Shown one piece after another: positions 9,853 through 64,000 of a stretch of 64,000 nucleotides of DNA (position 1 is the first letter of the stretch; each line of letters begins with the position of its first letter). The notes below the pieces were generated by a model that was not told the DNA's origin, ran no database searches, and saw nothing but the letters and a program-made list of their open reading frames with translations. The translations under genes were made by a program, and so were the position numbers. Origin of the DNA: a virus; IMG/VR virus record IMGVR_UViG_3300030117_006323, positions 1-64,000 of that record; one strand, given 5' to 3'.

Positions 9853-9862
9853 GAACCATCAA
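9846..9862 (+). promoter_or_regulatory. TTTAAG motif, copy B
   Basis: CCTTTAAGAACCATCAACA overlaps the last codons and stop of the previous gene. The downstream RFC-like gene has no ribosome-binding site. Its preferred ATG (9876) lies 30 bases from the motif start, which fits a leaderless transcript if the motif is a TATA-type element. An earlier in-frame ATG lies at 9867. Confidence 0.45.
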
Positions 9863-9875
9863 CAAAATGAAAAGC

Positions 9876-37900: not shown

Positions 37901-40900
37901 ATTCTGTGTGCCGTCATTGACATCCATAACTACACCACTGAATCCACCACCGAAATAGACAGGGACGCTGTGGTCAGGGCTATCTCGCCCGCCCCTGAAG
38001 TAAACTAGAGGTTCACCGTATGAATTACCGGACCTTCTTATCCCATCGAATGCAATTGTATCTGCAACAGAGCCGTAAGTCGAAATGACACAATCGTTGT
38101 TTGCGGTTTCAAAGGCTTCAATATTCGCCTCAAAGTTATCAGATACAGCACCACCTGTTGCGCGTGATTTCCACATTAGGAATAATTCCGGGTCTGTGGC
38201 ATTTCGTGTACTTTCAGCAATAACCCAATCCTTATCGTTTAGCCAATATCTACGGCGCTCACCCCAAGAATCAGCATTAGCGGAAGCAGGAATAGCCATG
38301 TGCCAAAGATAACCTGTGCCACTGGCTGCTCCAACTTTGATTGTCCGTGGATTAGAACTGGTATCAATTGTCGTAGAATCGCCGTCAATCAGTGCAGTTC
38401 GATTTTCAATCATAGGCAAGATGTAATCTCCGGGCTTGTCCACATAACGTGCTCCTCGTAGATTCTGCCTCCATGTGGTCACATCAACAGCATTGTTCAT
38501 CGTATCGACTAAAATGGGTGTGGCTGTATTCGCGTTGGTTCCTCTCGATTTGGTACGGAGGTGTAATACTGTCTCAGGTAAATACCCACATGCAGTACGC
38601 TCACCGGCTGTCAATTGATTAACTGACATAATTGCAGCATTTGTGCTACCACTGATACCCCAGTCTTTGGATAGTGAAGATTCAAACAAACAACGCAGTG
38701 GTGTAATATCGTGGTTTTGGCTATGTGCGCGCACACGGATGGCACCCGCATCCACGCCCCACTCACCGAGTGTGCGACCATCTGCTGCTCTCATATTGGT
38801 ACAATCAAATGTTGTGGCACTATCAGAATTAGGGTCATCCATATTGATAGCGAAATTAACAGCCGCTGCTATGACCTCATCTGTAAGTAATGTGGTCCAC
38901 CCAATCCGAGGGCTGATAATCAAACCACTATCACCGTTCGGTAAAGCAGTATTCCCGGTTACACCGTAGAACTTGTGTGTCCCACTTTTACTACTATGAG
39001 TACGACCTGTGTAAGAAAACGTCAATCCAGTTTCCGCTGCTGTTCCGGGTTTACTGGTTTGGAAAACACCGGCATCGGGGAATCCTAGATAGCCCAAAAT
39101 ATCATCGTGGCTGTGGGTGCCACCACTATGATATGGGTCTGGTAATTCGATTGTCACTGTTGTTCCGCTAACACTGACGTTATCAATTTCAATTCCTACA
39201 TTCGGGCAAGGGAATGGTTGCCATTTGTTCCCAACCCAAGTCGCAGTGCCTACCATAGACTCTGTTTCCAACAATCGCCCTGTGGCTTCTCCAATGCCCC
39301 ACATGTGTTTCCCGATTGTGAATCCACCTGACCCACAATCACGGTCATCGAACCAAATACACACTTCTTGGTCGATTGTAGGAGGTAGTGTACTGTTGTC
39401 GTAGGAGAAAGATTCGCCGAATTCAGAATAAATAAAGCGCAATGTGTGGGCTCGCCCAAGATGGTCAGTCAAACGAAGACCATACAATTGATTGCCAATA
39501 GCATCATCTTGTATTTCAGCAGAAGGAACATGTCCTTTCTCCACACCTGTATCATCAGGTGTAGTGTAATCTACTTCTGTCAAAGTGCCATTTTTACCAT
39601 AAGCATGTAAGTATCGAGTATTACCTTCTTTGCCCATGCCCCAAGGTCCTGCTCTAGGGCTAAACCCGGGCACACCAGAAGCAACTAAACCACCAAAATT
39701 GATGCGTGCTTGGGCTCTAGTTCCTAGCCGTAACCCTTGTGTCAACACAGAATCCGGGCTTTGGCTTTCATAGGAATCTTGGTAAACAGTGTTCTTGGAA
39801 TAACCACTAACACCCATGTTGTTCGCATTGGTGATAGCCGCATCTGTTTTTGAGCCATAATTCAGATTGTTCATGAATACATCTTCTGGCTCTTCTGGAG
39901 GTAGATATTCATTGAGAGTTGTAATCGGAGCAAAGGGCCTGCCATCTTTGTTGATAGGCATAGGTGCTGGATGCATATTTTCCATTAACACTTCATCCGG
40001 TCGGCACCAGAAATTACGGAATCGGCCACCATGTCCAATCAAGAATTTCGGTCGATAGGTACTCTGACCTTTGGAATTGTCTAACCATAGGCAGAAATTG
40101 CGCCCACTAGCACCGGGGACTGTACTATGGATGACAATGCTGAACCCTTCGTTTCCGTTTCCTTCAGCATCTTCTACTACACGGCCTAAGTGAGCACGCA
40201 CATAACCCATGTGTGACCCTCTATCGTGACTAGCAAATGCTTTGTCGATGTCCCAAAATGGAGCAGGGTCGTGTGTGCTACCCGTAGGAGAGAAATCGGC
40301 AGACAAGTGGGGTGCACTTGCATCAATCAAAGAGGGCTTGATGTTATCTCTCGGACCTTGAAGCACTTTGGAATGGCCGCCATCTTGGAAGATGCCGACT
40401 TTTTCTAAGCCCAATCGAGCGCTTTCACTTGGGTATTGGTTGGCAGGTCGGCGTGCATGAGTCCTCCCTTTAGGTGCTCCCGCTTGATTGATTAGACGGA
40501 CGACTTCTTGAGCCGCCGCTTGGATGTCCGTCACACCTTCCTTCACGCCAACTTCACCGAGGTCGATGGTCAGTCTTCGGACAAAATCCATTTGTGTCCA
40601 GTGGGATAGATGTTGCAAACGTGCCTCTTTGTGTGAGGTCAAATCTAGTGTTTCAGTTCTCTTGCCTTTGAGGCACAAGAATGCAGGTATAGCACGAGTC
40701 CCCTCCGGTGTATCAAAGAATGTGGCGTATTCTGCTTCGACTGCTTCACCAAGTGCTTGGAAGTGCCGATGTTTGAGAACAGCACTAGATGGACAACATG
40801 TCTCTTCATGTGTCCTAGGGGGTGAGCCGTCACCTACACAACCCCCTGCTTGAGGATGGTGGCCGTGGTCACCGTGTGCTTCAGTAGCAGCCCGATAATT

Positions 40901-43900
40901 CCATTCAGAATCATGGCTAAATGCTGCTTCCATAAATTCTGATGCTGCTGTAGGTGCCACGCTTTTATCTTCTGAAGGTTGGCCATTCTGTACATCTAAT
41001 TGGGTAGAATGATTCGCACTTGTAGGAGAGCCGTTAAAAGCGGCTGGGCCACTGACAAGATAACTGGCTGGAGTCCCAAACTTAGGTGTAGCGGGAGAAG
41101 ATTGTACTTGCATGTGAATATCATGCATAGCGATGAACTCTCTATCATGCGCAGTATCGTAGAGCAAAACGCGGGCAAATCCCGCTGTGGCTTGGTACGG
41201 GTCAACAAATGCGACAACAGGGGCACTATCATCACGCCCTAATTCTGCCCAATTCAATTCAATTGTTTTGTTGATGTGTTGTACAAAGTTGGTAGCGGTT
41301 TCTAAACAATCATTGCCAATCAAGAAGTTCTCCATTGGGATACTGTCTCTTGGTCTGTTAGCCAACGCTCCTTCGCCACCATTGAAATGCCGAGCAACTA
41401 ATGCTTCGTTGAATGTACCTCTGCTCTTGCAGAAGAGTCCTTCAACGGCATGAGGATTAGTGTAGTGCATGTTCATCCAAACTGTGTCGCCATCACGCAA
41501 ACCACCAGCCGCATACGGATGCAGCCAAGATGCATTTAGAGCGACATCTTCTTGCACTTGCGGATAAGCACTTGCAGAAATATTCCGGTAATCTTTGATG
41601 AACACTTCATCTCCAGCAGCAGGTCCCCAACCGCCAGATTTGGATGAGGCTATAATTGTCAATGTGTTTCCGTTAATGGTTTCGTATTGAGCGGTTTGTT
41701 CAGTGCCTGAAGAATCAATATACGCAACACGATACCGATATTGATAGGTCCCGCCTACTTTGTACAAGTCATCCATACCTGTCAGTGGGAAATCAGAAGC
41801 ATCTGTAAGAAGTAATGATGTACCACTCCAACTAATTACAGTTGAACGTGCTCTTCTGTTCTTCGTGCGTGGAAGGTGTGGGTTCTCTCTTGGGCCTGCT
41901 TTGAATTCTACTGCACTAACGTACTGTCTGAGACCGTAGTCAATGTTACCACCTTGTGTTTGGACATTTGCCCGGTCATAGTAGTAAGGCCGCCGTCCTT
42001 CATAGGCTGCACTCAGAATAGTAGGATGATTGCGGATGGCAGGGAAATTTTCATCGAATACACCGGGCCCCGGATACAATGCCATACCAACTTCATGTGT
42101 AGCCAAGAAATTTTCAGACATGCATTGGTCTAACAAATCATCATCGACAATTAAATCGTTCCCGCTAATCGAAGAATAGAGAATCCACTCTCCGTTGGGT
42201 AAGAATGCCCGTTGGTAAATTACAGCACCCGGTCTAGCACTGGCGGTTGCCCCAGTGTCTGTGTAATTGTTGAGTGCTGCCGCAGTAGTAGTCGAAGTTT
42301 CAAACATCCCTCCTTCTTCTACAGCCAGATAACCATGTGTGTCAATTCTGAAAAGTTGCTTGATATGTGTTCCTTTTCTCAAAGCGTTTTGGCCCTTGTT
42401 ATTTGCATGTGCACCGTAAATAGTACGGTCTGTCGGCGTATTGTCATCACAACGTCGCCCCACAGGATTTGGGGCCCATGTATGAGCAGTGTACGTACAA
42501 TCAACGTGAATTTTGAGCGAATTGTCAGGACCGGGTGAAATACAGGCTTCTTTGTTTTCAAAGAACAAATTTGGGAAAAGTGGTATTTCGACAAGAGCGC
42601 GAGTACCAGCATATTGAGTCCCTAATTGGTAATCGTGACTTACACTATCCATACGTTGGAACATACGGTCATTGATAGTAGAGCCATCATTACAGACAGA
42701 ACTCTCGCCAAACTCACCATCAACAAATAACAGAGTACCTGCGACAACACCGTTGTTAGCGACCCAATCGGCGAAGGTATCTGATTCAGTACCATTTCCA
42801 TTTAAGAAAGCAGCCGTTCCACCAGCACTAGAGCCACTGAATGTGAATACTGTGCCGCTTTTTGACGCATACAGAGCACTAGCCCCGTTCTCTAGATACA
42901 CTCGACCGACTTTCGGGAAGCAATACGTGCCCCAAGAAGCCAAATCACTTGAGTCGTTGTTGAGCGGTATAACCGTCAGAGTAGTAGAAGCAGTTGCAGA
43001 TATTTGCACCGCACAATCGCGCCGCGTATTCCATCCTAGGCGCGTGAATGGTGATGGGTCATAAGTCGGCTTTGTATTGATTGCACCTTGGCCGGGACCA
43101 CCTAGAGTCACAGTAACAACAGGAGAGCCGGGCATGACCTCTTTGACAACGTGTGAATCAGGGGCCCCTGAGCCAATGAAATCTACAGTTTTAGAAGAGG
43201 CATCTTCTGTAAGACCGACACAAGTCATTACAAGTGAATCTTCTCCATCAGAATCAGAATATGATTGTACGCGCATTTTAGAGACCAAATTACTGATACG
43301 GAATGTTGTCGATATATCCATTGTAGAGAGATTTTCTCCAACTGGCCATACTTTCAACAATTGCGTTGTTCTTGAACGGTCTGTTGGTTGGATGACTATT
43401 TTACTTGTTTCTTTCAATTTTCTATTCGCCAATGGACCTAATTCACCCGCAATGATGTCGAATGTTTCGTAAAGGTGGGATGAAATATCAGGGTCAGCAA
43501 TATCAAAAACACCAGCCCCCGTGTTACTTACAAAGGGCTGAAGATTATACACACCATATTCAGTGCGTTCCCCATAATTGTTGCCCGAGATTGTATCTGG
43601 AGTCATTTCTAGTAAATGGAAAACTGATGTTTTGGTTGAATCAGTGTGTTGAGCGGCAATTACTTGTGGCCCTCTGTTTGGAGGGTCGGTGGAAGTAAGT
43701 GGTGTGTAATTAACAGGTGTACGGCTTTCATCCAATTCATCTTCAAAATCAGAGCCTTCGTGGCCACTTGATTCAATGCTTTCTATCAAACCAGCAGGAT
43801 GATTACCACTATGTATTTCTCTAAATTCTAAAACCCCACCGGGTGAATACAAGAATGTCTCTTTCGCAGCATTGGCTAAATCAGAAGCAACCACATCATA

Positions 43901-45976
43901 CAAACGATTACCAGAGACTGGGAGTGTAATATCAAGAGATGGGACTGTTTTTTCTACAATTAGACATGGGGCCGTTAAACCCATACTTGCGCCTGTAATA
44001 TCAATTGCGTTGTAATACACATGAATAAAGGGAGCCATATTATCGTCGGCTAACGTAGGGACAGCCAAAACAGCAATGCGGCTTTCGCTAATTGGGCGAA
44101 GATGGGACTTTCGGATTGCATCAGTAGTCCCTTTTAAATTTGAAGGATATGGGCCTTTGAGCAAAAATGGCAAACAATCAAATTCTCTTTCTGTAATGGG
44201 TTCGCCCAAAAGTACAGAAGTCAAAACTTTGTCACTAGTAGATAAGCCACCGATGGCTAACATCTCGCGTCCATTGCCTGCACTCAAACCGTTACTTACC
44301 ATTTGGAAAGCAAAAGAGCCTGCTGTGAATTTAGCGACGGGAGCATTACATACATGCTGATACATATCAACTCGTGATTGCAATGGGACCGATTGTACTT
44401 CGGTGCGACTAGAAAAATCATAATAGAATTCTGATAAATCAGCGGAACCATCTGTCGATTGATGGACTATTTCTTCATTGGCAGGAGGCAATACAGATAA
44501 TGCAGAATGCCCTTTCACGGCCATAACACAATGTCTTGCTGTATGACCAATTTGAAAACCTGTATCTAGTGAAGCAGGCCAAACAGCAGCGAAAGGATTC
44601 TTTGGGTCTGTTGCTGTTGTCGCCATGCGTTTTGAATAAACTAAACCGTGTGAACCAATGGCTTCGTTCAAAACCATTTGACCTGTTCTATCGACAACTT
44701 GAGAACCATAATGAGGAGGTTGGTAAGGTTTTCCAGTCCCGCTGTCTAACAGTATATCTCCGACAACCAATACAAAATGGTCATCTGTATTTGCTGTCCG
44801 GCTGTGTAATACTCCTCTACGTGCGCCACCTATACCAAAATCCAAATGAATACTTTCGACACCAATGACTCCTGATGTCCCATTTACAGAAAGTAAGCGC
44901 AAACGCTCAGGTGGTTTGGCATTTGGTGTTTTGTTCAACGGATTTAGACCATCAGGGTTGAACAAAATATTGTACGGAGTATGAGGGATGAGTAAAGTCC
45001 CTGCCGTTCCCGGTGTAGACACATAGTCTGCCACTTCATAATTGCCACTAGAGTAGGGACCAGATGTATCTATCAAATTGATTTGAGAATTCGTAGATGC
45101 ATCGTATGCCTTCCCAGTAATGCTGGCTAAAATTGCTTGAGCACTAGCAGCAGGAATGGTAATTGTCTTAGTTGTTCCATCGCTAGCAGCCGAAAAAGCG
45201 CCACTTTGGTAAATTGTCTGATGGACATCTACGGGCTCTTCAAAACGATATTGAGCAATTAAATTAGTAGATTCAGGCGGGCTGACGGGTGACAGAATGT
45301 TATCTGTAAAACGAGAATACAATCTGATTTGCTCAATGGTACCTCTAAATTCTCCTCCTTTACCGCCAATATGGAAATCACCTGCATTATCTCTTAACAA
45401 CATTCTTGCATCAGCGGCGAATGTTTTTTTGGCGACAAGATTCCCATTGATGTAAATTGCCAACTGTTGAGATTGCATTACTGCTACAACATGTAATAAT
45501 TCTCGATGATTGATATTTAGTCCCGTGGCATCGGTTGATGATGTGTATGTGTTGTATGAACCATGGATGTCAGCCCCATGTCGTGGGAATACAAGCCCCG
45601 ACCATCGTGTAGGGCTTGCATCTGAGTCTTGAGATGCAGTCGTAAGATGCTCTAAAGTCCCATCAACGGTTTCGACAACTAATTTGGCAGGACCGGGTTG
45701 TTCAACAGAGCCTACTTTAAACTCAAAAACACCATCTTGCGAAAGAATAACACCACCACAATCTGGTCGTATCCAAGCGCTAACAACCAATTGCCTGTGT
45801 CTTAATTCATGCTGAGATGTTTTGTAACCATGTGCACTTTCACCTACGACAGAAAGCGATGATTTTCCACCGGGAACATCTACATAGGTTCGTGTGAAAG
45901 AAGCCTTTGGGATAACAATTGAGTCTGTAATTCCGTTAAAATACAACGCATGGTTTGTGTTTTTACGCAAAGACAA
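28931..45976 (-). CDS. Giant virion protein, 5,681 aa, lectin-like domains at both ends
   Basis: Single open frame of 17,046 bases without any stop. Residues 1-245 form a LamG/concanavalin-like domain (ALYFNGITDSI, RQLVVSAWI, HVVAVMQSQQLAIYINGN, GTIEQIRLYSR). A second one lies near the C-terminus at about 29560-30295 (GLALWLKSDSL, QWDDLSGNSRHF, MAEIIQYNRALSTTEIEQVEAYLASKYGI). Two copies of a ~100-residue module sit at about 31560-32325. The rest is low in Lys and rich in Gly, Ser, Thr, Asp, His and Pro. TTG start 45976 with GAGGTG upstream. It lies in the tail block, so a fibre, spike or surface adhesin is likely. It could also be cut into pieces after synthesis. Confidence 0.85.
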   Translation of the reverse strand: MSLRKNTNHALYFNGITDSIVIPKASFTRTYVDVPGGKSSLSVVGESAHGYKTSQHELRHRQLVVSAWIRPDCGGVILSQDGVFEFKVGSVEQPGPAKLVVETVDGTLEHLTTASQDSDASPTRWSGLVFPRHGADIHGSYNTYTSSTDATGLNINHRELLHVVAVMQSQQLAIYINGNLVAKKTFAADARMLLRDNAGDFHIGGKGGEFRGTIEQIRLYSRFTDNILSPVSPPESTNLIAQYRFEEPVDVHQTIYQSGAFSAASDGTTKTITIPAASAQAILASITGKAYDASTNSQINLIDTSGPYSSGNYEVADYVSTPGTAGTLLIPHTPYNILFNPDGLNPLNKTPNAKPPERLRLLSVNGTSGVIGVESIHLDFGIGGARRGVLHSRTANTDDHFVLVVGDILLDSGTGKPYQPPHYGSQVVDRTGQMVLNEAIGSHGLVYSKRMATTATDPKNPFAAVWPASLDTGFQIGHTARHCVMAVKGHSALSVLPPANEEIVHQSTDGSADLSEFYYDFSSRTEVQSVPLQSRVDMYQHVCNAPVAKFTAGSFAFQMVSNGLSAGNGREMLAIGGLSTSDKVLTSVLLGEPITEREFDCLPFLLKGPYPSNLKGTTDAIRKSHLRPISESRIAVLAVPTLADDNMAPFIHVYYNAIDITGASMGLTAPCLIVEKTVPSLDITLPVSGNRLYDVVASDLANAAKETFLYSPGGVLEFREIHSGNHPAGLIESIESSGHEGSDFEDELDESRTPVNYTPLTSTDPPNRGPQVIAAQHTDSTKTSVFHLLEMTPDTISGNNYGERTEYGVYNLQPFVSNTGAGVFDIADPDISSHLYETFDIIAGELGPLANRKLKETSKIVIQPTDRSRTTQLLKVWPVGENLSTMDISTTFRISNLVSKMRVQSYSDSDGEDSLVMTCVGLTEDASSKTVDFIGSGAPDSHVVKEVMPGSPVVTVTLGGPGQGAINTKPTYDPSPFTRLGWNTRRDCAVQISATASTTLTVIPLNNDSSDLASWGTYCFPKVGRVYLENGASALYASKSGTVFTFSGSSAGGTAAFLNGNGTESDTFADWVANNGVVAGTLLFVDGEFGESSVCNDGSTINDRMFQRMDSVSHDYQLGTQYAGTRALVEIPLFPNLFFENKEACISPGPDNSLKIHVDCTYTAHTWAPNPVGRRCDDNTPTDRTIYGAHANNKGQNALRKGTHIKQLFRIDTHGYLAVEEGGMFETSTTTAAALNNYTDTGATASARPGAVIYQRAFLPNGEWILYSSISGNDLIVDDDLLDQCMSENFLATHEVGMALYPGPGVFDENFPAIRNHPTILSAAYEGRRPYYYDRANVQTQGGNIDYGLRQYVSAVEFKAGPRENPHLPRTKNRRARSTVISWSGTSLLLTDASDFPLTGMDDLYKVGGTYQYRYRVAYIDSSGTEQTAQYETINGNTLTIIASSKSGGWGPAAGDEVFIKDYRNISASAYPQVQEDVALNASWLHPYAAGGLRDGDTVWMNMHYTNPHAVEGLFCKSRGTFNEALVARHFNGGEGALANRPRDSIPMENFLIGNDCLETATNFVQHINKTIELNWAELGRDDSAPVVAFVDPYQATAGFARVLLYDTAHDREFIAMHDIHMQVQSSPATPKFGTPASYLVSGPAAFNGSPTSANHSTQLDVQNGQPSEDKSVAPTAASEFMEAAFSHDSEWNYRAATEAHGDHGHHPQAGGCVGDGSPPRTHEETCCPSSAVLKHRHFQALGEAVEAEYATFFDTPEGTRAIPAFLCLKGKRTETLDLTSHKEARLQHLSHWTQMDFVRRLTIDLGEVGVKEGVTDIQAAAQEVVRLINQAGAPKGRTHARRPANQYPSESARLGLEKVGIFQDGGHSKVLQGPRDNIKPSLIDASAPHLSADFSPTGSTHDPAPFWDIDKAFASHDRGSHMGYVRAHLGRVVEDAEGNGNEGFSIVIHSTVPGASGRNFCLWLDNSKGQSTYRPKFLIGHGGRFRNFWCRPDEVLMENMHPAPMPINKDGRPFAPITTLNEYLPPEEPEDVFMNNLNYGSKTDAAITNANNMGVSGYSKNTVYQDSYESQSPDSVLTQGLRLGTRAQARINFGGLVASGVPGFSPRAGPWGMGKEGNTRYLHAYGKNGTLTEVDYTTPDDTGVEKGHVPSAEIQDDAIGNQLYGLRLTDHLGRAHTLRFIYSEFGESFSYDNSTLPPTIDQEVCIWFDDRDCGSGGFTIGKHMWGIGEATGRLLETESMVGTATWVGNKWQPFPCPNVGIEIDNVSVSGTTVTIELPDPYHSGGTHSHDDILGYLGFPDAGVFQTSKPGTAAETGLTFSYTGRTHSSKSGTHKFYGVTGNTALPNGDSGLIISPRIGWTTLLTDEVIAAAVNFAINMDDPNSDSATTFDCTNMRAADGRTLGEWGVDAGAIRVRAHSQNHDITPLRCLFESSLSKDWGISGSTNAAIMSVNQLTAGERTACGYLPETVLHLRTKSRGTNANTATPILVDTMNNAVDVTTWRQNLRGARYVDKPGDYILPMIENRTALIDGDSTTIDTSSNPRTIKVGAASGTGYLWHMAIPASANADSWGERRRYWLNDKDWVIAESTRNATDPELFLMWKSRATGGAVSDNFEANIEAFETANNDCVISTYGSVADTIAFDGIRRSGNSYGEPLVYFRGGRDSPDHSVPVYFGGGFSGVVMDVNDGTQNDYSDFYTHPYSEGPTGSAGLQNIGEKSTSYCLVDCAAMLAMFPGTPYLDNHKGENNPPFYNQDGILSPDLDAGNNSRTGTTGMASDSDYGYGAGANITKVTIPSPVILRFAHSHSRYSHDASSSGKTTYIVFGPGQAFPHNNAAIQPNLGKDTVKTLSGAAGEFTPNTLTSGDVNGRHSGGTLTPPSANFQIGNAKGWNYVDNWEPAQGKPNVRSAASVHGYDQTPYDGLYYGSHFTSGSYAPPPYAHPFDYAPTSLIGSSLRHAGFIWHMDGGYHPGGHFLDRHVLINAPHYKDSGTVTHNGTAKSHPSAFRVSGLLAASYGATSAYSTEEFVIVDATRVQNAEELAAVLSCSINEWPGRDPLKAIGGTFLPSFQTGHKQDRYGWQAFTAMEMAGEGGNPDFYEQIGGSGTNYRLNLLNPYGADLPPLPRYGWLRVGIGGNDNGSGAARVASYSVGATAVYAPYHTMTVPNPGHLQVTLDVNRGGTKQLEESVVDTATAATASTVNAVKAEATVYIWTKAGAHIFNNGRTNSGANSQNHMCQVHFNGLMDAIDRTRAVGAIGWHGERYSYLNSLDLRNPDDASTAVYAAGLGAWHPYLGFSPYGASSTCQGSVIPVSRESGTMNYTYNSVCPQGLSPRHLVAVTYESELALIAKADRDGTKGVGDWLYAAQVKSGVSNTQEFGGTIAVADQVFNLDRYVAPANAGPNVEAQIVTGQTQPTNTASYNNVGTESHWHSRVTAASQMSLLTSCAVPTGDLFWDESSVYSNRLHADKNSLSVNCNVSGTTATPPDDLEPWNYWAARSPARNFTIEHIVWKRMDGGNLTMPACNARGLGAVPFTTRVSGVNAYTMGETIYGNCRFSFESTNSAMFPIIQAQELSHPQLAEQPVGSELQNVLTIPNEETQFESVEVMDDTGQIHVIEGGSPFGTIIRDFELVSDRSSEGLSPTLANSGLAPNMRIRLPDPDTIPGNIIVRSGFDRIQSYQNETLGSGGMMHPAQPVQGITDTFTDSAKGPRGWPTWENKGWEHISQDADDSSLTAGETRLAFPDQHSKGWDDHTDGNPLETAYEQHDRTLFFHVTKMGHTGSSRNPTAISSGSIVSDPLTFSSSGTNTVTAGSSPNAAVWKIDSEKTADGRWFARVEDATGQGALFSYTNISSANFTGVVFDPDFSTFISGKTGLVIKPSWYIPAGSNRFFAARRLRDHSEISGNSPDAKRLDWTETNPVTLLTKPKLTPMPIPRMGHHYVTPSMMVMPGHFSHPAYERAFNLHYGCRSSSKTAIDDDTSLAITNIPVRDPLVWFSTPSSALRPSDIHGGAFTLLTETKVAYDGYGIAASKGAAGTANAAGKHIIYLEAAGTYSLKPHFPDPIEVGAYQIIIQPNLHKQQFSGFHRNGAATALPDGSAVELTGQQVNLVIGLEHDAAGSTGAVGLLLAEATMADTRGCEIFINEVMLDLDPDPGSQFTNIPTLGLYNPIGVNENTSPPFSRRSLPYRPGTFERATPGYTLTVPWWAILHRSKPTSSIASGYVFNEWHKPDDYYQFCRATYGAVGCQITLAGYPSIYPDIYENHFRARSLNPHCVVLSLSSTNRTITVDNNELFPVDSFYGEVLEYIDNEGSRQTATYTHRTGTKSHSLEVGPTKFENVIAVTPAFWTKLAAAEILRLSRPYDTTPAGSIFQASTTSAITRVLPQTYHGSRDTNSLHQADAFLCLWHPNLGRPYTFYSDTGRTFYTNTGAADTPQDKKGLNHIPEHFETIHYHDFLYSISKGPFSFDMKGQAPASDGTAQNASDLTNHQGDGSRQYVGFWPGGSRGGPAGSRLDGYGYIKAGWGDNDYGMECTPYSYDTSTGGIDQLLLASINIGASKPSAGNTIVITSAAKTTKTYTAVSGSATITSNQFSVDNTNADVAESLLLAIKHASGHNGEIDVTRASGVLTLTDTPSEVKNQSLIVSNLANTTVTQFSGTHTLLSTLEHDRQYCFGYRFAVRPPFNRPRWSPGIRGIDEVEETAATASITFTGDPTTDRTIILISTDGTTKTYTAKNTAAFASNQFDANGGAAANATSLKGAVEHASGHNGKILVADDGAGTLTFTQNVAGSAGNTVIVSTLDNTTHTSFTGGHSSSAEYNMTGYSHGPFVAQDSRTQASGGWKENADAGLSGAADIVWNATNAGILERQTQATAMLGNDQTMRQVRYSHGRRMTRPFGCPTRTVRNASTVRKKYPGDDSGLGIDEIAEAHRFYLVDWWGNTRGEDVRRFPARGFGIRPAWDPEEAYTDDAYANLKPSATDLWHDDGASYKTEQEGTTNSTNNSDMTRVDWFNPKRAQRIGDRGDGRGMRWPTVFNESLLHDISEDLLPAGLVLSHSTAEPPFTTGYLRPANSAPASTEIPRGISARLGVAQDGLLKPEANVSEKVETVSGTFTIGGVTLADPMSRSAPRIGLDVETIEAISGGQETDHIAMSTQAHSLHTDKEVGQRLSLRGAFNAGSTTLTHFDLTTPTWATQPDAAVVRLSNAHAMWPLGGTYVLEVRNYAQPFDDSGWGQQMPLSGLALWLKSDSLDLAGGAAVTQWDDLSGNSRHFTQSTSSLQPSYVASDSDFNSKPVVNFDGSDKLALNFDAGLNTNEFTVFIVTAVSSDTDAIEAIIDSRSSSPVTRSGFNFYADMRNTGGNNNWEFWVGADSSWKALSASGDSASTSGVPSILVGQVSGGNGAGASATQLFRVDGVQVGTQSANFYKSTADASQLGTNATSSYQLNGDMAEIIQYNRALSTTEIEQVEAYLASKYGIGSTSTFKSWNPSNPYQDGPVVSSTAGTHNAVSGTQMNYFDKTVRFLLRPSRVLDNRHVEIFRADSVTKSSTPQDGNDAYRSTSGGKYGLFNYDMPNARTGTVTPVSPPYSPSYTIDSAAPTLSLSSGPNIPGADVSGYSVALDKTVARILITENTLEHFRSDAPRRRFYSTDADGSSITRRDYSVQPRHSQTLHAKGEEGTASYNTGDHSGE
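31560..32325 (-). repeat. Two related ~100-residue modules inside the giant protein
   Basis: Both copies share the order TKTYTA, SNQF, a helix with HASGHNG, then LTLT or LTFTQ, and a [ST]xLxNTTxTxF-like end (VSNLANTTVTQF and VSTLDNTTHTSF). Copy 1 is about 31985-32325, copy 2 about 31560-31885. This is a domain known from phage tail fibres and adhesins, here as an imperfect tandem. Confidence 0.65.
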
Positions 45977-56561: not shown

Positions 56562-57701
56562 TCAACTGAGGTCACGAATGCTCCCTTGTGCTCCGAAGAA
56601 AGAGCACCACATTTCACCCATAGTTCGGTAAAGACCTTCCTGACCAAGTCGGTTGATACCGAATGGGTCACCAGTCTCAATACCACTCTCAAAGTATTGG
56701 GTCGGAATTGCTGTGCTGAACCAGACATAGTCTGTGTCCAAGTAGTAGATACGGCTGATACCGTCAGTTGGCATATCCTTGGTTGGGATGATTGGCACAC
56801 CGTTGTAGGTTGCGACAATAAATCCTGCCTCGATACCGGGTACGCCCTTTACACCGTTGAAGGTTGGGACGACTCGCTTCTCTTCCATGAATCGCTGTTG
56901 GCTCTGGAGGAGTTGCTGGATACGCATTAGTGTGTCATAGCCAGTTAGCATAACCTTGGGGTTACCACCACGAACCCAAATCTGTTGGAAGAGGGCGTCA
57001 AGGTGGTCAAGGCTAAGGGTTCGGTTGGTTCCCTTTGTGCCACTGCTGCTGGTCTCAGCACTGTGGAAGTCTGCACTACCATCGCGCGTAATGGAATACA
57101 TATCGTTGTCCGTGGTTGCGCTACAGTAGGAATTACCACTGGTGTGAGTATCTGGGTTCGTAGTGATACGGTCCAGAGATTCGTAATCGTTGCCCGCAGT
57201 TGTGTCGAAGTCCGTTAGGAGCATTCGGTTTACGTGGTCTGCGTGGTGCTTACCCATTTCCTCCTTGAGGATTTGGCGGATGTCACCAAGGCCATCGTCC
57301 TTGTCAGCAAGGAAAATTGCTGTCTCGGACATGTCAAAGGTGTGAGCCACCGTCTTGGGCTTTGCAGCCACGTGTAGGAAGGTAGGCTTGGTGGTGTCTG
57401 GCAGGGTTGCGTTTTCAGCAACACCGCCGCCCTTGGTGAACGAAGGCTTGGCGGTAATGATTCTCCAACCGCTTCGGTCCCATGGCTTCTTGGGTAGAAT
57501 GCTGAATGCGTTGAATTCTTGGTTCAACTGGCTCCAGACCTTGCGACCATAAATCGCTTGGTATGTGCCGGCAGTGGTGCTCATCAACGGAGCATCAGCC
57601 TTCAATAGTTCAGAGCCACTGTATGAGTAGCCCATTGCGTTACCAGCGCCATAGTAATAGCGCTCTAAATCAGTTACTGTTCGGATATAATCTCGTGCCA
57701 T
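56562..57701 (-). CDS. Major capsid protein, HK97 fold, 379 aa
   Basis: Begins MARDYIRTVTDLERYYYGAGNAMGY, with an N-arm and long spine helix. Segments TYQAIYGRKVWSQLNQEFNAFSILPKKPW and TAKPSFTKGGGVAENATLPDT are the P-domain/E-loop region, and IEAGFIVATYNGVPIIPTKDMP then a closing FGINRLGQEGLYRTMGEM are A-domain like. The protease gene stands immediately upstream and SD GGAGAGTGA is six bases before ATG. Length is usual for this fold. No separate delta domain visible inside it; that role would be taken by the scaffold domain in the protease gene. Confidence 0.9.
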   Translation of the reverse strand: MARDYIRTVTDLERYYYGAGNAMGYSYSGSELLKADAPLMSTTAGTYQAIYGRKVWSQLNQEFNAFSILPKKPWDRSGWRIITAKPSFTKGGGVAENATLPDTTKPTFLHVAAKPKTVAHTFDMSETAIFLADKDDGLGDIRQILKEEMGKHHADHVNRMLLTDFDTTAGNDYESLDRITTNPDTHTSGNSYCSATTDNDMYSITRDGSADFHSAETSSSGTKGTNRTLSLDHLDALFQQIWVRGGNPKVMLTGYDTLMRIQQLLQSQQRFMEEKRVVPTFNGVKGVPGIEAGFIVATYNGVPIIPTKDMPTDGISRIYYLDTDYVWFSTAIPTQYFESGIETGDPFGINRLGQEGLYRTMGEMWCSFFGAQGSIRDLS

Positions 57702-57706
57702 TTATT

Positions 57707-58552
57707 TCACTCTCCTTGGTGCCAAACTGTTCCGGCGAGGTTGTGCACCTCATTCCAATCCATGTTGGCTAGTTCTTCAGTTGTTGGGATTGCCACGCTG
57801 CTAGATGCAGGCGCGGACTTCTGAAGTGTGGTTCCGGTTTGTCCACCGGATAGGGTGTCAATGCGCTCATTGAGTTGCTCGATAGCCTTCATGACTTCTG
57901 TCATAGGTCCGCGTGCATCGTATGCATGCTTCTCGGCTTCTGCCTTCTCAACTGCTTGCTCTTGACCCAAGCGGGCCTCAAAGACATCACCAAGGCTTTC
58001 CTTGAACTGCTGCTCAAGTGCTGCTGCCTTGTAAACTTGGTATGCTGCTTCTACATCAGCAGGGTTCACAGAGTCAGGGTGTAGGAACTCTGACTTGTTC
58101 ATGGTAGAGGCTTTGCCCTTTCCACCAGTGCCGTAATTGGCCTTGGGTACTTCTGGCTTTCCTTCAACCTGTGTGTGCCCCTTGGCTTGACCTGTGCGCT
58201 GGGTTTCATTACCAGCCAACTGCTCAGGTGTTGAGCCAAGGTTTGCCTTGTTCATCTGGTCGAAGTGGTTACGTGCTGCCGCTGTGTCCACACCAGCGCT
58301 CTTGACTGTGCTTTCTAGCCAATCAAGATATTCACTGGTGATAACATCTGAATACTGCGATTTCTCCATGTCATCATCTTCCTTTTCGTCTTTCTTTTCG
58401 TCTTTCTTTTCGTCTGAATCTTTGGATTCTTTCTTATCTTCCATGAAAGGAGGCATTTCTCCCTTTTCCATGGAATCAATTCTAGTTTCCAAACGGTTCA
58501 AAACACTCGATAGTTGGTCGAGTGTATCCATATTACTGCTTTCACTTGTCAT
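57707..58552 (-). CDS. Nested scaffold protein from internal in-frame start, 281 aa (predicted)
   Basis: Within the protease gene, ATG 58552 is preceded by AAAGGAGGACACAACA, GGAGG eight bases before the ATG. It would give a protein starting MTSESSNMDTLDQLSSVLNRLE, with a coiled-coil-like helix, the acidic KDEKKDEK stretch and the C-terminal capsid-facing helices, without the protease. The same gene-in-gene layout is known for lambda C/Nu3. Whether it is used cannot be told from the sequence. Confidence 0.6.
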   Translation of the reverse strand: MTSESSNMDTLDQLSSVLNRLETRIDSMEKGEMPPFMEDKKESKDSDEKKDEKKDEKEDDDMEKSQYSDVITSEYLDWLESTVKSAGVDTAAARNHFDQMNKANLGSTPEQLAGNETQRTGQAKGHTQVEGKPEVPKANYGTGGKGKASTMNKSEFLHPDSVNPADVEAAYQVYKAAALEQQFKESLGDVFEARLGQEQAVEKAEAEKHAYDARGPMTEVMKAIEQLNERIDTLSGGQTGTTLQKSAPASSSVAIPTTEELANMDWNEVHNLAGTVWHQGE

Positions 58553-59074
58553 TGTTGTGTCCTCCTTTAGGATTCTGAATTGAGCCTCTGGGTTTATTCC
58601 TTTTTCACAAATGGTTACTTCGTGGAGTTCAAGTTTACTGATTTCGGTGTAATCTCCGTGTTCTTTGTCGCTTTTGTTCATTCTTTTGAATGCTTGACCA
58701 CCGATACTAAATCCACGTAAATTGCCTTTTCTAATTTCGGCTGCGACTTCACGTGCTTTTTCGATGTCACTTCGGAGTTTGACTACTACAAACATCCCGA
58801 CATCATCAACTTCGCTTTTCCAGACCCTCCCATTGCTATCTGTGTGTTTGCTAACTACTTCTCCAACTTGTATATTTGAGTGAGCCAATTGAACATTCTG
58901 AAATCCGGGGTTTTCCATAAATTTCCCGAATGCGTCTTTCAATGCCTCCTTTGTAATTAAGTCACCTTGTTTATCGACTAATTCGACGCTAGCATACCCA
59001 GCGACGACCAGTTCACTACCCTTGAGGATAGAGATACCCCCACGGGGCAACCGGAGTCTTGGTTCAGCCAACAC
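57707..59074 (-). CDS. Prohead protease fused to scaffold, 455 aa
   Basis: N-terminal ~170 residues are a U35-type serine protease: VAGYASVELVDKQGDLI, then VQLAHSNIQVGEV (catalytic His), then LRGFSIGGQAFKR (Ser), and closing ELHEVTICEKGINPEAQF. Residues ~175-455 are helical, with acidic Lys-Glu repeats (KKDEKKDEKEDDD), and look like a scaffold. GTG 59074 or a start near 59096 is possible; no ATG is in frame. An internal ATG at 58552 with a strong ribosome-binding site would give the scaffold alone. The genes before and after match the standard order protease, capsid. Confidence 0.88.
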   Translation of the reverse strand: MLAEPRLRLPRGGISILKGSELVVAGYASVELVDKQGDLITKEALKDAFGKFMENPGFQNVQLAHSNIQVGEVVSKHTDSNGRVWKSEVDDVGMFVVVKLRSDIEKAREVAAEIRKGNLRGFSIGGQAFKRMNKSDKEHGDYTEISKLELHEVTICEKGINPEAQFRILKEDTTMTSESSNMDTLDQLSSVLNRLETRIDSMEKGEMPPFMEDKKESKDSDEKKDEKKDEKEDDDMEKSQYSDVITSEYLDWLESTVKSAGVDTAAARNHFDQMNKANLGSTPEQLAGNETQRTGQAKGHTQVEGKPEVPKANYGTGGKGKASTMNKSEFLHPDSVNPADVEAAYQVYKAAALEQQFKESLGDVFEARLGQEQAVEKAEAEKHAYDARGPMTEVMKAIEQLNERIDTLSGGQTGTTLQKSAPASSSVAIPTTEELANMDWNEVHNLAGTVWHQGE

Positions 59075-59117: not shown

Positions 59118-62100
59118 TCAGATAACAAGTGAAGCCTCGTCGCTATCGACAGTCAATTGGCCTTCTTCTCCTTCTTCTGTTTCCAATTTTTCTTCGATTT
59201 TATTCTTATCTTTACTGTTTTTGGATTGTTGTTGCCAAGTTTTCTCTGGGTCAGTCATTGGTCGTTCACGCATATCCCAATCAGGAATAGTAGATTCACT
59301 TACCAAATCAGTCGGACCTCGTGGTGAAGAGCCCGGTGTCCCATAATCCATACCCATGCCTCTAGCGCCAGTCCAAGTTGTACGTTCTTTGCTAATGACT
59401 TCTAAAGCACGCAATGCGACTTCTAATGCCTTGGTTACAGTAGGTTTGTGAAATGTATCTTTGATTTTCTTGGGTTCAATCAAAGGCTCTGCATCCTCAC
59501 TACTTTCGTGTACCTCTTCTTTTTTCTCGGTATCTTCGTATTCTAATCCTTTCAGCAAGGCTGCTGCTACAGGAGACCAAAACGGCCTCACACTTTCTGA
59601 CAAACGAATAGAATAGGAATTGTCACTCATATCGCCCATGAGCGCTTGAGGTGAATGAATAAGCCATCCTTCAGGCCACTCATCAATTTTGTAAAGCACT
59701 TCATCATTGAGGGCAGGAAGAGTTACAGCAACTTGGTTGCCACGAATAGTAACACCGTGTGGCCATTGGATTGGAGCGTAAGATTTTGTCAATAGAGACA
59801 GAGTTTCAAGACTCGCTGGGCCTTCACCGAATCCTTCTCCTTCAATATCTTGGGCTTGGATTGTATATACATCGCGCCCGTTACGTGTAGATTGTGTCAC
59901 ACTGTCAATTCCGACATTGACAATATCTCCAATATTGAACGGCTTTTGGCTACGTACAATTGTACCAATATCCATGTACGGTTTCTCATCATGGCTCTTG
60001 GCTCTGTTCCCTAATCCTTCATTATCAATCAAAGGACCTGCACCTAACCTGTAGGAATAAGGACCCTTGCCCTTTCTATCCAATACAATAAAGTTCAATT
60101 CTTTAGGTGAGCGCAATAGAATCCACTTTGGATGTCTGCGTTCTCCTTTCATGTAGGTAGATTGCGCGTCACGTAGCAGATACATAGAATCATTTTCTTG
60201 TAAATTCTCTAACGCTTTGGCTAAATTTTCTTCATCTGCTGTGCGTGTATTGTGAGGTGCTGGCAGTTCTACATGTTCGTTGCTTGAATAATGAGCGCGC
60301 AACAATTTGACTCTTTCATGTGAATTCAAATCACTCACATCATCCTTTTGATGTTTGAGAATATCAAGAATTTGGAAATTATCACCAGACAAAATACCGT
60401 CGATGACGTAATCATCGTCAGAAATACTCTTGAGAGAACCGGGAAGTCCTGTGTCTAAAGATTTGGTTTTCCCGTTTTCATCATACACTGTGACTTTACC
60501 ATCTTCTTTGGAGACAATCAAACGCTCTCCTTGAGGGATTCTTGAAATGACCCAATCACCACTAAAGCCCTTGAGAGCAGCCAAATCATCTTGGTCAAAG
60601 ATACGATGCATAGGTCGTATCGGTGGAGCCCAATTTTCTGATGCTTCTTTGAGTAAAATATCAGGATTCATCAGACTAGTAATGGGCAAATCTTCTGATG
60701 CTGTGAAAATATTCGGGTCATCTAAGGGGTCGCTACCCATTGGAGACATTGTCATGAAATTAGGAGCAGCCAAATGTAATTCAGAGCCCATGTGTGGTTC
60801 CAATTGTGGGAATGCACTCAACAAATATGGCGCAGGGACGCTGTGTAAACGAGTAGGAACAGGTACTGAAGAACGAGCAATTTGGCTACTACCATCTGTC
60901 GCATTAAATCTTGGCCAGAAATCAGGAGCCATCAACCAACCTGATTCTAAACGGCCAGCCTCTAACAAATCTAACACTGAATTATGATTAGGTCCAACTG
61001 GACCAAGTGGCATTTGAATCCATTGTGCTTTTTGCTGTTCAGGAGGTTGATATTCTGAAGGAGATTCTACTTCAGGGTCATGGAGAACAAAAGAGTTCAA
61101 TCTTTCCATTGCGTCAAGGCGATTGTTGTGTCTTTTGATTGGAGCGCGACCGCTTCCGCCCGTGTTAGGCATATCTTTTCTGTCACCATAAGAAGCACCG
61201 GGCACCCATGTGAGCCCATGAGCAGAGGCTTCATCGCCTGTGAATCTGAATAAATTATTCAATTGACGCAAACCACCATGTACGTAAGGGTCATGAGAAT
61301 TTACCAATTCTTCCATATCCCCGGAAATAGGCTCTACATTGGGTATCATACCTGCATTGTAAATTTCAGATGCACGCAAAGCAACTTGTGGTTTCCCGCC
61401 CAGTGCATTCAAAATTTCTTGAGCATGTTTTTTCTGCATAGAATCAGAGGAATCCAGTCCTAATTTTTCCATAACTTGTTCAGGTGTGTCATCAGGTTGT
61501 ATAGTCCTACCAGAGGCTAGGCCCTTCGCTCCTCCTGCCATTTGCGCGAAAGGATTGTTTTGGATACGAGGCATATCTTTGGTCGCTACTTGTTCAACTG
61601 GTGCTACATCATAACCTAAACCAGTTTGCCCATGATGCTCATGAGGCATTTCCATCATGTAACGCTGAGCGAATCTAAACGCTTGCAGAGCATTTGAAAG
61701 TAGTCTTTGTGGGTCATCGTCAGGGAATAAATCTGGGTGTTCTTTTGTCCATTGAGGTATGAGTTGTTTGACTACATTAGTGATAGCGTCAAAATGACTG
61801 CCCATCATTTCATTGTGTTTGTCAGAAAACCAAGTGGCTCTGTCATCTTGTGCAACTCCTGCTCGTGTAGGCATTGCGTCGAGACTTACTTCTAAATCAC
61901 GCAAATCTTCATTCATAGCCCTGAAGTGCTCAATTTTATTCTGTGCGCGCTGGCGCATATCATCATCGACCCAATTGCCATTTTCATCCGTACCTCTTTG
62001 ATGAAGATGGGCAATCTCTTCTTCCATGACATTCAATCTGTGTAAAATTTCATCTGCTCGACCGTGCAAAGCCTGTTCTTCAGGAGTAGGAACCATTTCA

Positions 62101-64000
62101 GGCAATTGTTTCATTTGTGCTCTTGTGTTTTGTGTGATTTCTTCTACCTGCGCGACCCAATTTTCGTGTTGTTCTGTGTATGCATCTTCGGCAACCTTTC
62201 TCTCTTCTGCACTTAATTCTTCTAATTGTTTAGGCGTATATTGCATCACAGGTTCTGGTGGGATTAAGCCCATTTTGTCGGCTACTTTGTGTGGGTCTTG
62301 ACCATCTAATTGACCAAGTTCTCTCATTGTTCTAACCATGTCAAGAGTTTGGGCATCCATTACCTGCATTCCTTCCATAGGATAATTGGTCAAACCTTGG
62401 TGGTCTGAAAACGCACGAGTGCTCGCGTAAGGAATTTTACTTACATCGACTAAATCTTTCGTGATGTCACTAAATTTCAATACCTTGGAACCCATAGGTG
62501 AACCCGGAGGGTGCATTCTACCCAGAAGTGCAATCATGCGCTTTTTGAGAACATCGCCCATTCTCGGATTGATATGTCCTTCTGTTGAAGATTCCATTCT
62601 TGTAAATGGGTCGTATGTGTGTAATTGACGGCCACCCATGTAACGATTTGTAGTAACACCCAATTCTTTTTTCCGTTGCGTGTCATGAATACGCATGGCT
62701 TTGTCTGTAAAAACTGGATGACTAGAAGATGCTGTTAGAGTGAAATTGTTTTTGGAAGTTCTAGGCTCTTCGTGTGGTGTATGGTCCTCTGCGACAGTTG
62801 TACCTGATTTGTCCCACATATTGAGAATAGAGGCAAGTCGAGATTCACTACGCGACAAATCATCAGAAGTGTGAACTCCACTAGGGGGCATAACAGATGC
62901 AAAAACACCTAGCATGTCTGGACGAATTTCCAATGATTCTAACTCTCCAGTTACAGGATTGTGTTTCCCAGTACCGAGGAATGAATGAGACAAGTGGTCC
63001 GTCGAACTACCTGTTTTGATTTTTTGGCCATCAACATCTACACCCCCGCTATCTTTAGTGATTCCTGTAGTAAGGAAATTGTGCATCTTTTCTAGATAAG
63101 ACATCAAAGAACGATTGGCCCCTCCTTTGGAAAATGCTCTGTGCCAATGAGAAGCAAAAGTATCACTGTGCCCACCTGTTGTGTCTGTATGGTAAATATC
63201 AGGTATGCCCAGTTTTTCAATATCTGCTTTACTAGGCCCACGTGCTCCTCTTTGGGCTAGTGCTGCATTTCTGATGCTTTTTTCACGATTGTCTAAATCT
63301 TCCAATTTCAACGATTCTTTGATTACACCCATGTATTGGTCAGGAGTGAGTAAAGGACCTTCCCAATCTGGGAACAAAGGATGTTCACCTGCTTCAATGG
63401 GGTCACCATCTTCATCGTAACCGGCTAGAAGATTGAATACATGTGCACTCAAAGAAGGAGGAGTGCCCTCTTTCGTTCTTTGGCGTTTGATTTTGTGTGG
63501 TTCGCCATCTTTCCGAGGAATAAGGAAAGGCATTTCTGTGTGTTCTTTGTCATCCTCATAATCCATGTAATCGTTAAAACTTTCAAGCAAAAAATCATGT
63601 GCGTTTCTGCCATCTAAATCTAAATTTTTCAAAGCCTTGTTCAAATTCCGTTGCCCTCTATATTCTCCTTTGTACGGTTTCTCAAGAATTTGGTTTTTAT
63701 TGGGCCCAACCATGTGTGGATAACGATAGTACCACAAATATTCTGGGAACATACGACGCATCATATTCCGCTTAAAACGACCTATTGACATGTGAGGGCT
63801 GTTTTGATTGTAATCTGAGCCATTTTCCATGACATGTGTGAGAAATTCAGTTCGCTGTTGAGGTGTTAAAAATTCTAAACCACCCATATAACCTAGCCAT
63901 CCTAATTTAGAAGAATGAGATTTACCCTCGCTATCAATAAAATCCTCACCACTTGTCCATTCTTTGGCCATTTCTCTGAAATGCTGCTGCCTAGCATTCC
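59118..64000 (-). CDS. Very large head-module protein with degenerate ligase-like domain (partial at right edge)
   Basis: A frame of at least 1,617 residues from ATG 63971 to TGA 59118. Upstream of that ATG the frame stays open to the window edge (…HFRE before MAKEW) and there is no ribosome-binding site, so the true start may lie outside. Residues ~1115-1345 resemble an ATP-dependent DNA ligase core: FSGDWVISRIPQGERLIVSK (motif I lacks Lys; K-x-D-G-x-R reads I-P-Q-G-E-R), DYVIDGILSGDNFQILDILK, SHERVKLLR, YLLRDAQSTYMKGERRHPKWILLR, LDRKGKGPYSYRLGAG. The rest (long helical, Met/His/Pro-rich) is unknown. The place between presumed portal and protease is where phages often code MuF-like capsid-internal proteins. 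Confidence 0.7.
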   Translation of the reverse strand, partial: NARQQHFREMAKEWTSGEDFIDSEGKSHSSKLGWLGYMGGLEFLTPQQRTEFLTHVMENGSDYNQNSPHMSIGRFKRNMMRRMFPEYLWYYRYPHMVGPNKNQILEKPYKGEYRGQRNLNKALKNLDLDGRNAHDFLLESFNDYMDYEDDKEHTEMPFLIPRKDGEPHKIKRQRTKEGTPPSLSAHVFNLLAGYDEDGDPIEAGEHPLFPDWEGPLLTPDQYMGVIKESLKLEDLDNREKSIRNAALAQRGARGPSKADIEKLGIPDIYHTDTTGGHSDTFASHWHRAFSKGGANRSLMSYLEKMHNFLTTGITKDSGGVDVDGQKIKTGSSTDHLSHSFLGTGKHNPVTGELESLEIRPDMLGVFASVMPPSGVHTSDDLSRSESRLASILNMWDKSGTTVAEDHTPHEEPRTSKNNFTLTASSSHPVFTDKAMRIHDTQRKKELGVTTNRYMGGRQLHTYDPFTRMESSTEGHINPRMGDVLKKRMIALLGRMHPPGSPMGSKVLKFSDITKDLVDVSKIPYASTRAFSDHQGLTNYPMEGMQVMDAQTLDMVRTMRELGQLDGQDPHKVADKMGLIPPEPVMQYTPKQLEELSAEERKVAEDAYTEQHENWVAQVEEITQNTRAQMKQLPEMVPTPEEQALHGRADEILHRLNVMEEEIAHLHQRGTDENGNWVDDDMRQRAQNKIEHFRAMNEDLRDLEVSLDAMPTRAGVAQDDRATWFSDKHNEMMGSHFDAITNVVKQLIPQWTKEHPDLFPDDDPQRLLSNALQAFRFAQRYMMEMPHEHHGQTGLGYDVAPVEQVATKDMPRIQNNPFAQMAGGAKGLASGRTIQPDDTPEQVMEKLGLDSSDSMQKKHAQEILNALGGKPQVALRASEIYNAGMIPNVEPISGDMEELVNSHDPYVHGGLRQLNNLFRFTGDEASAHGLTWVPGASYGDRKDMPNTGGSGRAPIKRHNNRLDAMERLNSFVLHDPEVESPSEYQPPEQQKAQWIQMPLGPVGPNHNSVLDLLEAGRLESGWLMAPDFWPRFNATDGSSQIARSSVPVPTRLHSVPAPYLLSAFPQLEPHMGSELHLAAPNFMTMSPMGSDPLDDPNIFTASEDLPITSLMNPDILLKEASENWAPPIRPMHRIFDQDDLAALKGFSGDWVISRIPQGERLIVSKEDGKVTVYDENGKTKSLDTGLPGSLKSISDDDYVIDGILSGDNFQILDILKHQKDDVSDLNSHERVKLLRAHYSSNEHVELPAPHNTRTADEENLAKALENLQENDSMYLLRDAQSTYMKGERRHPKWILLRSPKELNFIVLDRKGKGPYSYRLGAGPLIDNEGLGNRAKSHDEKPYMDIGTIVRSQKPFNIGDIVNVGIDSVTQSTRNGRDVYTIQAQDIEGEGFGEGPASLETLSLLTKSYAPIQWPHGVTIRGNQVAVTLPALNDEVLYKIDEWPEGWLIHSPQALMGDMSDNSYSIRLSESVRPFWSPVAAALLKGLEYEDTEKKEEVHESSEDAEPLIEPKKIKDTFHKPTVTKALEVALRALEVISKERTTWTGARGMGMDYGTPGSSPRGPTDLVSESTIPDWDMRERPMTDPEKTWQQQSKNSKDKNKIEEKLETEEGEEGQLTVDSDEASLVI

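What the first reader, a model, noticed from the sequence alone, without database searches (positions are those of the whole stretch)
59930..60620. Ligase-like pseudoenzyme embedded in a very large head-module protein
Seen: the region carries, in order, a motif I position (ISRIPQGERLIV), a DGE-like IDGI, and a motif IV/V block LLRDAQSTYMKGERRHPKWILLR followed by GKGPYSYRLGAG. Known: ATP-dependent DNA ligases need the Lys of K-x-D-G-x-R, which is Ile here, and the Asp is Gln. Inference: a nucleotidyltransferase fold has been recruited into a virion-module protein, perhaps to hold DNA ends, nicks or a nucleotide in the capsid. I know of no described capsid protein of this kind.
Basis: partly seen in the sequence, partly recalled or inferred. 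Interest (0 to 1): 0.85.

Follow-up and report, generated by a model that had tools for sequence, protein, structure and literature searches.

The report
Dead ligase domain in archaeal virus
A giant head-gene-cluster protein of a marine archaeal virus ends in a DNA ligase domain that has lost all its catalytic residues, while sister viruses carry an intact ligase at the same place; this looks like an enzyme turned structural part, and it is probably what papers call the magrovirus 'DNA ligase'.

Summary
Confirmed, extended and partly corrected. The window comes from a 91-kb magrovirus-like record (tailed virus of marine Poseidoniales archaea). The ORF runs past the window edge: 1949 aa, always between portal and prohead protease/major capsid genes. 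Its C-terminal part (aa ~1450-1730) is a genuine ATP-dependent DNA ligase nucleotidyltransferase-plus-OB module: confident AlphaFold2 model, Foldseek E 3e-12 to archaeal ligases. It is catalytically dead across the family: 139 of 139 relatives lack the motif I lysine; motif III, IV and V catalytic residues and a ~25-residue segment are also lost. Yet it is the best-conserved part of the protein. New here: a sister virus lineage carries, at the same place (portal - ligase - protease - capsid), an ~848-aa protein with all motifs intact (60 of 60 ORFs) plus a second normal ligase in its replication genes. So the ligase lost its active site in place in the magrovirus line, probably once. A published magrovirus 'ATP-dependent DNA ligase' beside the prohead protease is almost certainly this protein; 25 magrovirus records hold no recognisable intact ligase. 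What the dead domain does is unproven: a structural head/packaging role is likeliest; DNA holding is possible but the domain is net acidic.

The parts
59118..63998 (-). Window part of the 1949-aa giant head-module ORF (whole ORF = record 59118-64967, L002:119-5968 -)
   Evidence: next to the protease in 149/149 relatives
60093..60620 (-). Degenerate ligase nucleotidyltransferase domain, about aa 1450-1625, starting with the ligase-like linker PIRPM
60513..60554 (-). Motif I place WVISRIPQGERLIV: Lys->Ile, Asp->Gln, Gly and Arg kept
60393..60407 (-). Motif III place VIDGI: catalytic Glu lost; followed by a deletion of about 25 residues relative to intact relatives
60357..60377 (-). Motif IIIa place FQILDIL
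60111..60179 (-). Motif IV-V block LLRDAQSTYMKGERRHPKWILLR: EG..K -> ..LLRD, KW.K.K -> KW.LL; (S)TYM-GE-RHPKW nearly invariant
59793..60092 (-). OB-fold domain, about aa 1626-1725 (contains GKGPYSYRLGAG)
59118..59792 (-). C-terminal part: small beta domain, helices and conserved tail (KE.T.TG..G..YGTP..SPRGPT...PD)
57707..59074 (-). Prohead protease (Peptidase_S78) gene directly downstream
56562..57701 (-). HK97-type major capsid protein

Best explanation
The region is the C-terminal nucleotidyltransferase-OB module of an ATP-dependent DNA ligase fused to a fast-evolving ~1400-aa N-terminal part, made from the head gene cluster of a magrovirus. Shown: fold, loss of every catalytic motif in the whole family, fixed place beside portal, protease and capsid genes, and an intact counterpart at the same place in a sister virus lineage. 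Inferred: an active head-cluster ligase (which may have sealed nicks before or during packaging) lost catalysis once in the magrovirus line and was kept as a structural, non-catalytic module, most likely working in head assembly or DNA packaging through contacts with a protein partner or with DNA; it should be unable to adenylylate itself or seal nicks. My odds: ligase-derived fold 0.97; catalytically dead 0.95; structural role in head assembly/packaging 0.6; DNA binding retained 0.3.
For: Fold. Catalytic loss: Lys column W 109, Y 21, I 6, S 2, M 1 of 139, never K; motifs III/IV/V also lost; ~25-residue segment absent. Selection: the domain is the most conserved part (mean column identity 0.50-0.67 against about 0.2 for most of aa 1-1400); pN 0.16-0.18 against saturated pS about 0.77 in the domain, pN about 0.35 in the N-terminal part. 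Place: 149/149 loci giant before protease, 91/91 portal before giant. Intact counterpart in the same order, with portal 45%, protease 39%, MCP 40% identical to the window's; KxDG, EGV[VIM]IKD and KW[IV]KxK intact in 60/60 full ORFs. The magrovirus profile hits the head ligase at E about 1e-50 and the replication ligase only at 0.003. Tree: dead forms one group (support 73), intact head ligases another (89), replication ligases outside (100).
Against: No virion proteomics: presence in particles is inferred from gene position only. Support that the dead forms are one clade is weak (73). The structural role is deduced from loss of catalysis plus conservation, not tested. The domain's net negative charge does not favour DNA binding. 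The N-terminal 1400 aa match nothing useful in Pfam or PHROGs, so the attachment point is unknown.
Confidence: 0.7

Rival explanations
1. In-capsid DNA clamp: the dead ligase kept its grip on nicked or ended DNA and holds the genome end or nicks near the portal, or is ejected with the DNA and shields ends.
For: Derived from a DNA-binding enzyme; gene lies next to the portal; Gly and Arg of motif I and a basic RHPKW block are kept.
Against: Net charge -11 (family mean -6.5) against -1.8 in intact head ligases; no DNA_ligase_A_N DNA-binding domain found in these records; motif I Arg is His in 21 of 139.
Confidence: 0.25
2. Ligand-binding pocket reused, as in snurportin, whose cap-binding domain is a nucleotidyltransferase-like fold without catalysis: the Trp/Tyr that replaces the Lys stacks on a nucleotide or other ligand.
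For: Best Pfam hit of the region is SPN1_m3Gcap_bd (E 7e-5, below its cut-off); aromatic residue at the Lys place in 130 of 139.
Against: The window itself has Ile there; Foldseek prefers DNA ligases; archaea have no m3G caps; an aromatic side chain may simply plug the empty pocket.
Confidence: 0.12
3. It is a working DNA ligase with unusual active-site residues, as the literature name implies.
For: Papers call the magrovirus gene next to the protease an ATP-dependent DNA ligase (PMC7318539) and list ligase among replication genes.
Against: All lysines and glutamates of motifs I, III, IV and V lost family-wide, plus a deletion next to the active site; no substitute Lys is conserved.
Confidence: 0.03
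4. Decaying relic: the domain has no function and is on its way out.
For: All catalytic motifs gone.
Against: It is the most conserved part of a large protein and is found in hundreds of contigs.
Confidence: 0.03

Closest known systems
Archaeal/eukaryal-type ATP-dependent DNA ligases (Thermococcus sibiricus 4eq5, Pyrococcus furiosus 2cfm, Archaeoglobus fulgidus 3gde; PF01068)
   Same: Nucleotidyltransferase plus OB fold, PxxPM linker, (S)TY--G-R--KW block, motif order
   Different: No motif I Lys/Asp, no catalytic residues in III, IV, V, about 25 residues deleted, no recognisable PF04675 N-terminal DNA-binding domain, fused to 1400 aa of unknown sequence
Intact head-cluster ligase of sister archaeal viruses (L210, L221, L226 and relatives; mostly about 848 aa)
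   Same: Same gene place, specific sequence kinship (E about 1e-50), same surroundings
   Different: All motifs intact, own 230-aa N-terminal and about 280-aa C-terminal parts, no giant N-terminal part
Snurportin-1 m3G cap-binding domain (1xk5; PF21974)
   Same: Nucleotidyltransferase-like fold without catalysis; weak sequence match
   Different: Eukaryotic nuclear import adaptor; ligand and context not shared
T4 RNA ligase 1 / tail-fibre attachment protein gp63 (from memory)
   Same: A ligase-superfamily protein with a role in virion assembly
   Different: gp63 keeps ligase activity and acts on tail fibres; not encoded between portal and protease

Membership tests
ATP-dependent DNA ligase (PF01068) | Nucleotidyltransferase fold of the ligase type | tested here: met
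   Foldseek E 3.4e-12 to archaeal DNA ligases; profile E 0.002; many relatives hit PF01068, several above its cut-off
ATP-dependent DNA ligase (PF01068) | Motif I KxDGxR with the nucleophilic Lys | tested here: not met
   0 of 139 relatives have Lys; window IPQGER
ATP-dependent DNA ligase (PF01068) | Catalytic Glu of motif III and Glu/Lys of motif IV | tested here: not met
   DGI/DAI/HAI and ..LLRD instead of D(A/G)E and EGVVIK
ATP-dependent DNA ligase (PF01068) | Motif V lysines (KWxKxK) | tested here: not met
   KWVLL/KWILL
ATP-dependent DNA ligase (PF01068) | OB domain after the nucleotidyltransferase domain | tested here: met
   AlphaFold2 strands aa about 1623-1711; 350-column alignments to ligases
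ATP-dependent DNA ligase (PF01068) | N-terminal DNA-binding domain PF04675 (of archaeal/eukaryal type) | tested here: not met
   No match in 17 records including the window's
ATP-dependent DNA ligase (PF01068) | Adenylylation and nick sealing | not testable with these tools
   Needs purified protein
Snurportin cap-binding domain (PF21974) | Match above the family's curated cut-off | tested here: not met
   23.3 bits against cut-off 27
Known minor head / portal-proximal proteins in Pfam or PHROGs | Sequence match of the N-terminal 1400 aa | tested here: not met
   No relevant hits for the 1626 aa inside the window, nor in PHROGs for two full-length relatives
Virion structural protein | Detected in particles | not testable with these tools
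   Gene position only
Magrovirus (order Magrovirales) | Archaeal replication genes (PolB, RFC small subunit), TFIIB, chaperonin, HMG-CoA lyase, HK97 head genes | tested here: met
   compared with PMC10768690

The most novel reading that the evidence does not exclude
A DNA ligase became a structural head component: the dead domain works inside the procapsid or virion as a clamp on the packaged genome's end or nicks, while the living sister version seals nicks during packaging; the two lineages together would record the change from packaging enzyme to capsid part.
Probability: 0.2. Interest if true: 0.85.

Novelty: new variant of a known kind. Interest (0 to 1): 0.66.

Why it matters
It documents an enzyme-to-pseudoenzyme change with both states preserved at the same gene place in related viruses, in one of the most abundant groups of marine archaeal viruses. 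It suggests that a ligase can belong to a head/packaging gene set, which makes a link between nick repair and packaging testable. It also warns that the 'ATP-dependent DNA ligase' quoted as evidence that magroviruses replicate almost without host factors is, at least in the lineages examined here, a dead head-cluster protein.

Tried and rejected
Single-sequence search of viral contigs and tblastn of the phage collection with the window domain found nothing; going through the major capsid protein opened the family. HVTV-1 and two methanogen-associated viruses share the capsid protein, and HVTV-1 has two large proteins between portal and protease (1048 and 1313 aa), but none matches the giant. 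NAD-dependent ligase (PF01653) and PF04675 searches were empty in 17 records. The giant's N-terminal part is not recognisably a fusion of the neighbouring 707-733-aa gene of the sister lineage. AlphaFold2 of the second ligase-like protein (window 7997-9466, three sequences) failed (mean pLDDT 38.5), so that case rests on weak sequence matches and gene position. A shifted catalytic Lys was considered: many relatives read SKWYDGKR, with Lys one place early, but it is not conserved (window Arg, others Ser/Ala/Leu) and motifs III-V are lost as well. One search ended in an error after printing the values quoted. Searches failed because of wrong coordinates.

Full report
WHAT THE WINDOW IS. The window is bases 1-64000 of a 91,170-base virus record. 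It carries PolB, an RFC small subunit, TFIIB, a chaperonin, an ERCC4-type nuclease, a PD-(D/E)XK nuclease, HMG-CoA lyase (just beyond the window), an HK97 major capsid protein and an S78 prohead protease. That set matches the published description of magroviruses, tailed viruses of marine Poseidoniales archaea (PMC10768690).

THE PROTEIN. The ORF runs past the window edge and is 1949 aa (record 59118-64967, minus strand). Upstream lie three small genes, the portal, a protein with a LAGLIDADG-like stretch, and the large terminase; downstream, after 43 bases, the prohead protease and then the capsid protein.

FOLD. The alignment of 29 relatives (A1) finds archaeal DNA ligases in the PDB (E 0.002), and NCBIfam's best matches for the window domain alone are all ATP-dependent DNA ligases, at weak E of about 0.01. 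The AlphaFold2 model of aa 1434-1949 is confident over the domain, and Foldseek lists archaeal and human DNA ligases with E from 3e-12 over about 350 columns. In the viral structure library the best match is an unnamed 827-aa viral protein, E 3e-24 over 563 columns, followed by viral DNA ligases. So the nucleotidyltransferase and OB folds are real. Global TM-scores are only 0.28-0.39, as expected if the two domains sit differently and the query has extra parts.

DEAD THROUGHOUT. A profile search of viral contigs confirmed 588 stretches as relatives, of which 80 were kept, besides the 80 loci found through the capsid protein. In 139 sequences with motif I covered, the Lys column is W 109, Y 21, I 6, S 2, M 1 and never K; Asp is kept in 71 (typically SKWYDGKR), Gly in 138, Arg in 117. 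Motif III has lost its Glu, motif IV reads LLRD where intact relatives have EGVVIKD, motif V reads KW(V/I)LL where they have KWIKxK, and a stretch of about 25 residues between motifs III and IIIa is gone. Despite this the domain is by far the best conserved part of the protein, and it evolves under strong constraint (pN 0.16-0.18 with saturated pS, against pN about 0.35 in aa 1-1400). It is neither an enzyme nor a relic.

A LIVING COUNTERPART. One match in the cellular genome collection (L210, a contig binned with a Maricaulis genome but carrying viral portal, protease and capsid genes) led to a sister virus group. There an ~848-aa protein between portal and protease has EKYDGIR, LDAE, SEGVVIKD and KWIKFK, that is, every ligase motif, and PF01068 at about 1e-30. 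Over two searches motifs I, IV and V were intact in 60 of 60 full ORFs; motif III was found by pattern in 47, and the others printed read FDAEI (several contigs appear in both searches). Portal (45%), protease (39%) and capsid protein (40%) are also shared with the window, in the same order. The two 96-kb records of that group also hold a second, conventional intact ligase of 516-520 aa among their replication genes. The dead magrovirus domain is kin to the head-cluster ligase (E about 1e-50), not to the replication ligase (E 0.003). A quick tree puts dead forms, intact head ligases and replication ligases in three groups, with modest support (73) for the dead forms being one clade. The simplest history: an intact ligase sat in the head cluster; the magrovirus line lost catalysis once and gained a giant N-terminal part.

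WHAT THE LITERATURE CALLS IT. [quoted passage not shown] Given the fixed neighbourhood (149/149 loci), that ligase is almost certainly this protein. In 25 magrovirus records (own record plus 24; many incomplete, several about 95-110 kb) PF01068 matches fall in the giant ORF only, apart from one very weak match to the protein described next. NAD ligase and PF04675 matches were absent in 17 records. So the statement that these viruses bring their own ligase (PMC12999244, PMC10768690, PMC10160649) is doubtful for the lineages seen here. I could not read the 2017 paper that first named the gene, so the identity of the annotated gene in other groups remains inferred.

A SECOND DEGENERATE LIGASE-LIKE PROTEIN. 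Window 7892-9469, directly before a 128-aa ORF and the RFC small-subunit gene, has weak ligase signals (PF01068 is its only Pfam match, E 0.13; a five-sequence profile finds one chain in the whole PDB, Archaeoglobus DNA ligase, E 0.24, in register) and no KxDG. In the sister genome the intact replication ligase also lies shortly before what reads as the RFC small subunit. It may be the dead remnant of the replication ligase. Its structure prediction failed, so this is a lead.

HOW IT MAY WORK. Shown: fold, catalytic loss, constraint, gene place, intact counterpart. Inferred: co-production with head proteins and a non-catalytic part in head assembly or packaging. That a ligase can matter for packaging is known from phage T4 (from memory: T4 DNA ligase is needed for encapsidation). 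Whether DNA binding survived is open; the acidic net charge (-11 against -1.8 in intact head ligases) speaks mildly against it. A snurportin-like reuse of the pocket is a lesser rival.

VERDICT.

Noticed in passing
window 7892-9469 (+): Second ligase-like protein without KxDG, just before the RFC small-subunit gene, where the sister lineage has an intact 516-520-aa ligase; possibly a dead replication ligase.
   Followed up: partly
window 28931-45976 (-): A 5681-aa ORF in the tail region, close to 19% of the whole record; no family assigned (too long for the scan used).
   Followed up: no
L002:9063-10421 (-), record 68062-69420: A 452-aa protein with a LAGLIDADG-like stretch (AGFLDADGYITITKRGEPRAGFIATGERG) lies between terminase and portal and is conserved at the same place in the distant sister lineage, unusual for a free homing endonuclease.
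   Followed up: no
L210 (NZMJ01000101.1): Contig filed under a Maricaulis genome is a marine archaeal-type virus (portal, ligase, protease, capsid), so the bin is contaminated.
   Followed up: partly
L085:2146-10480: Halovirus HVTV-1 has 1048-aa and 1313-aa ('zeta toxin') proteins in the same portal-to-protease slot; large unrelated proteins seem common there in this virus group.
   Followed up: partly
L221, last ~140 aa of ORF 8977-11499: Intact head ligases end in a conserved domain (WTIDIE..DIYNLFGKSGKFP..LLDSG.I..GVQRHGYHEYKL..WTG.KQKM) with no Pfam match.
   Followed up: no
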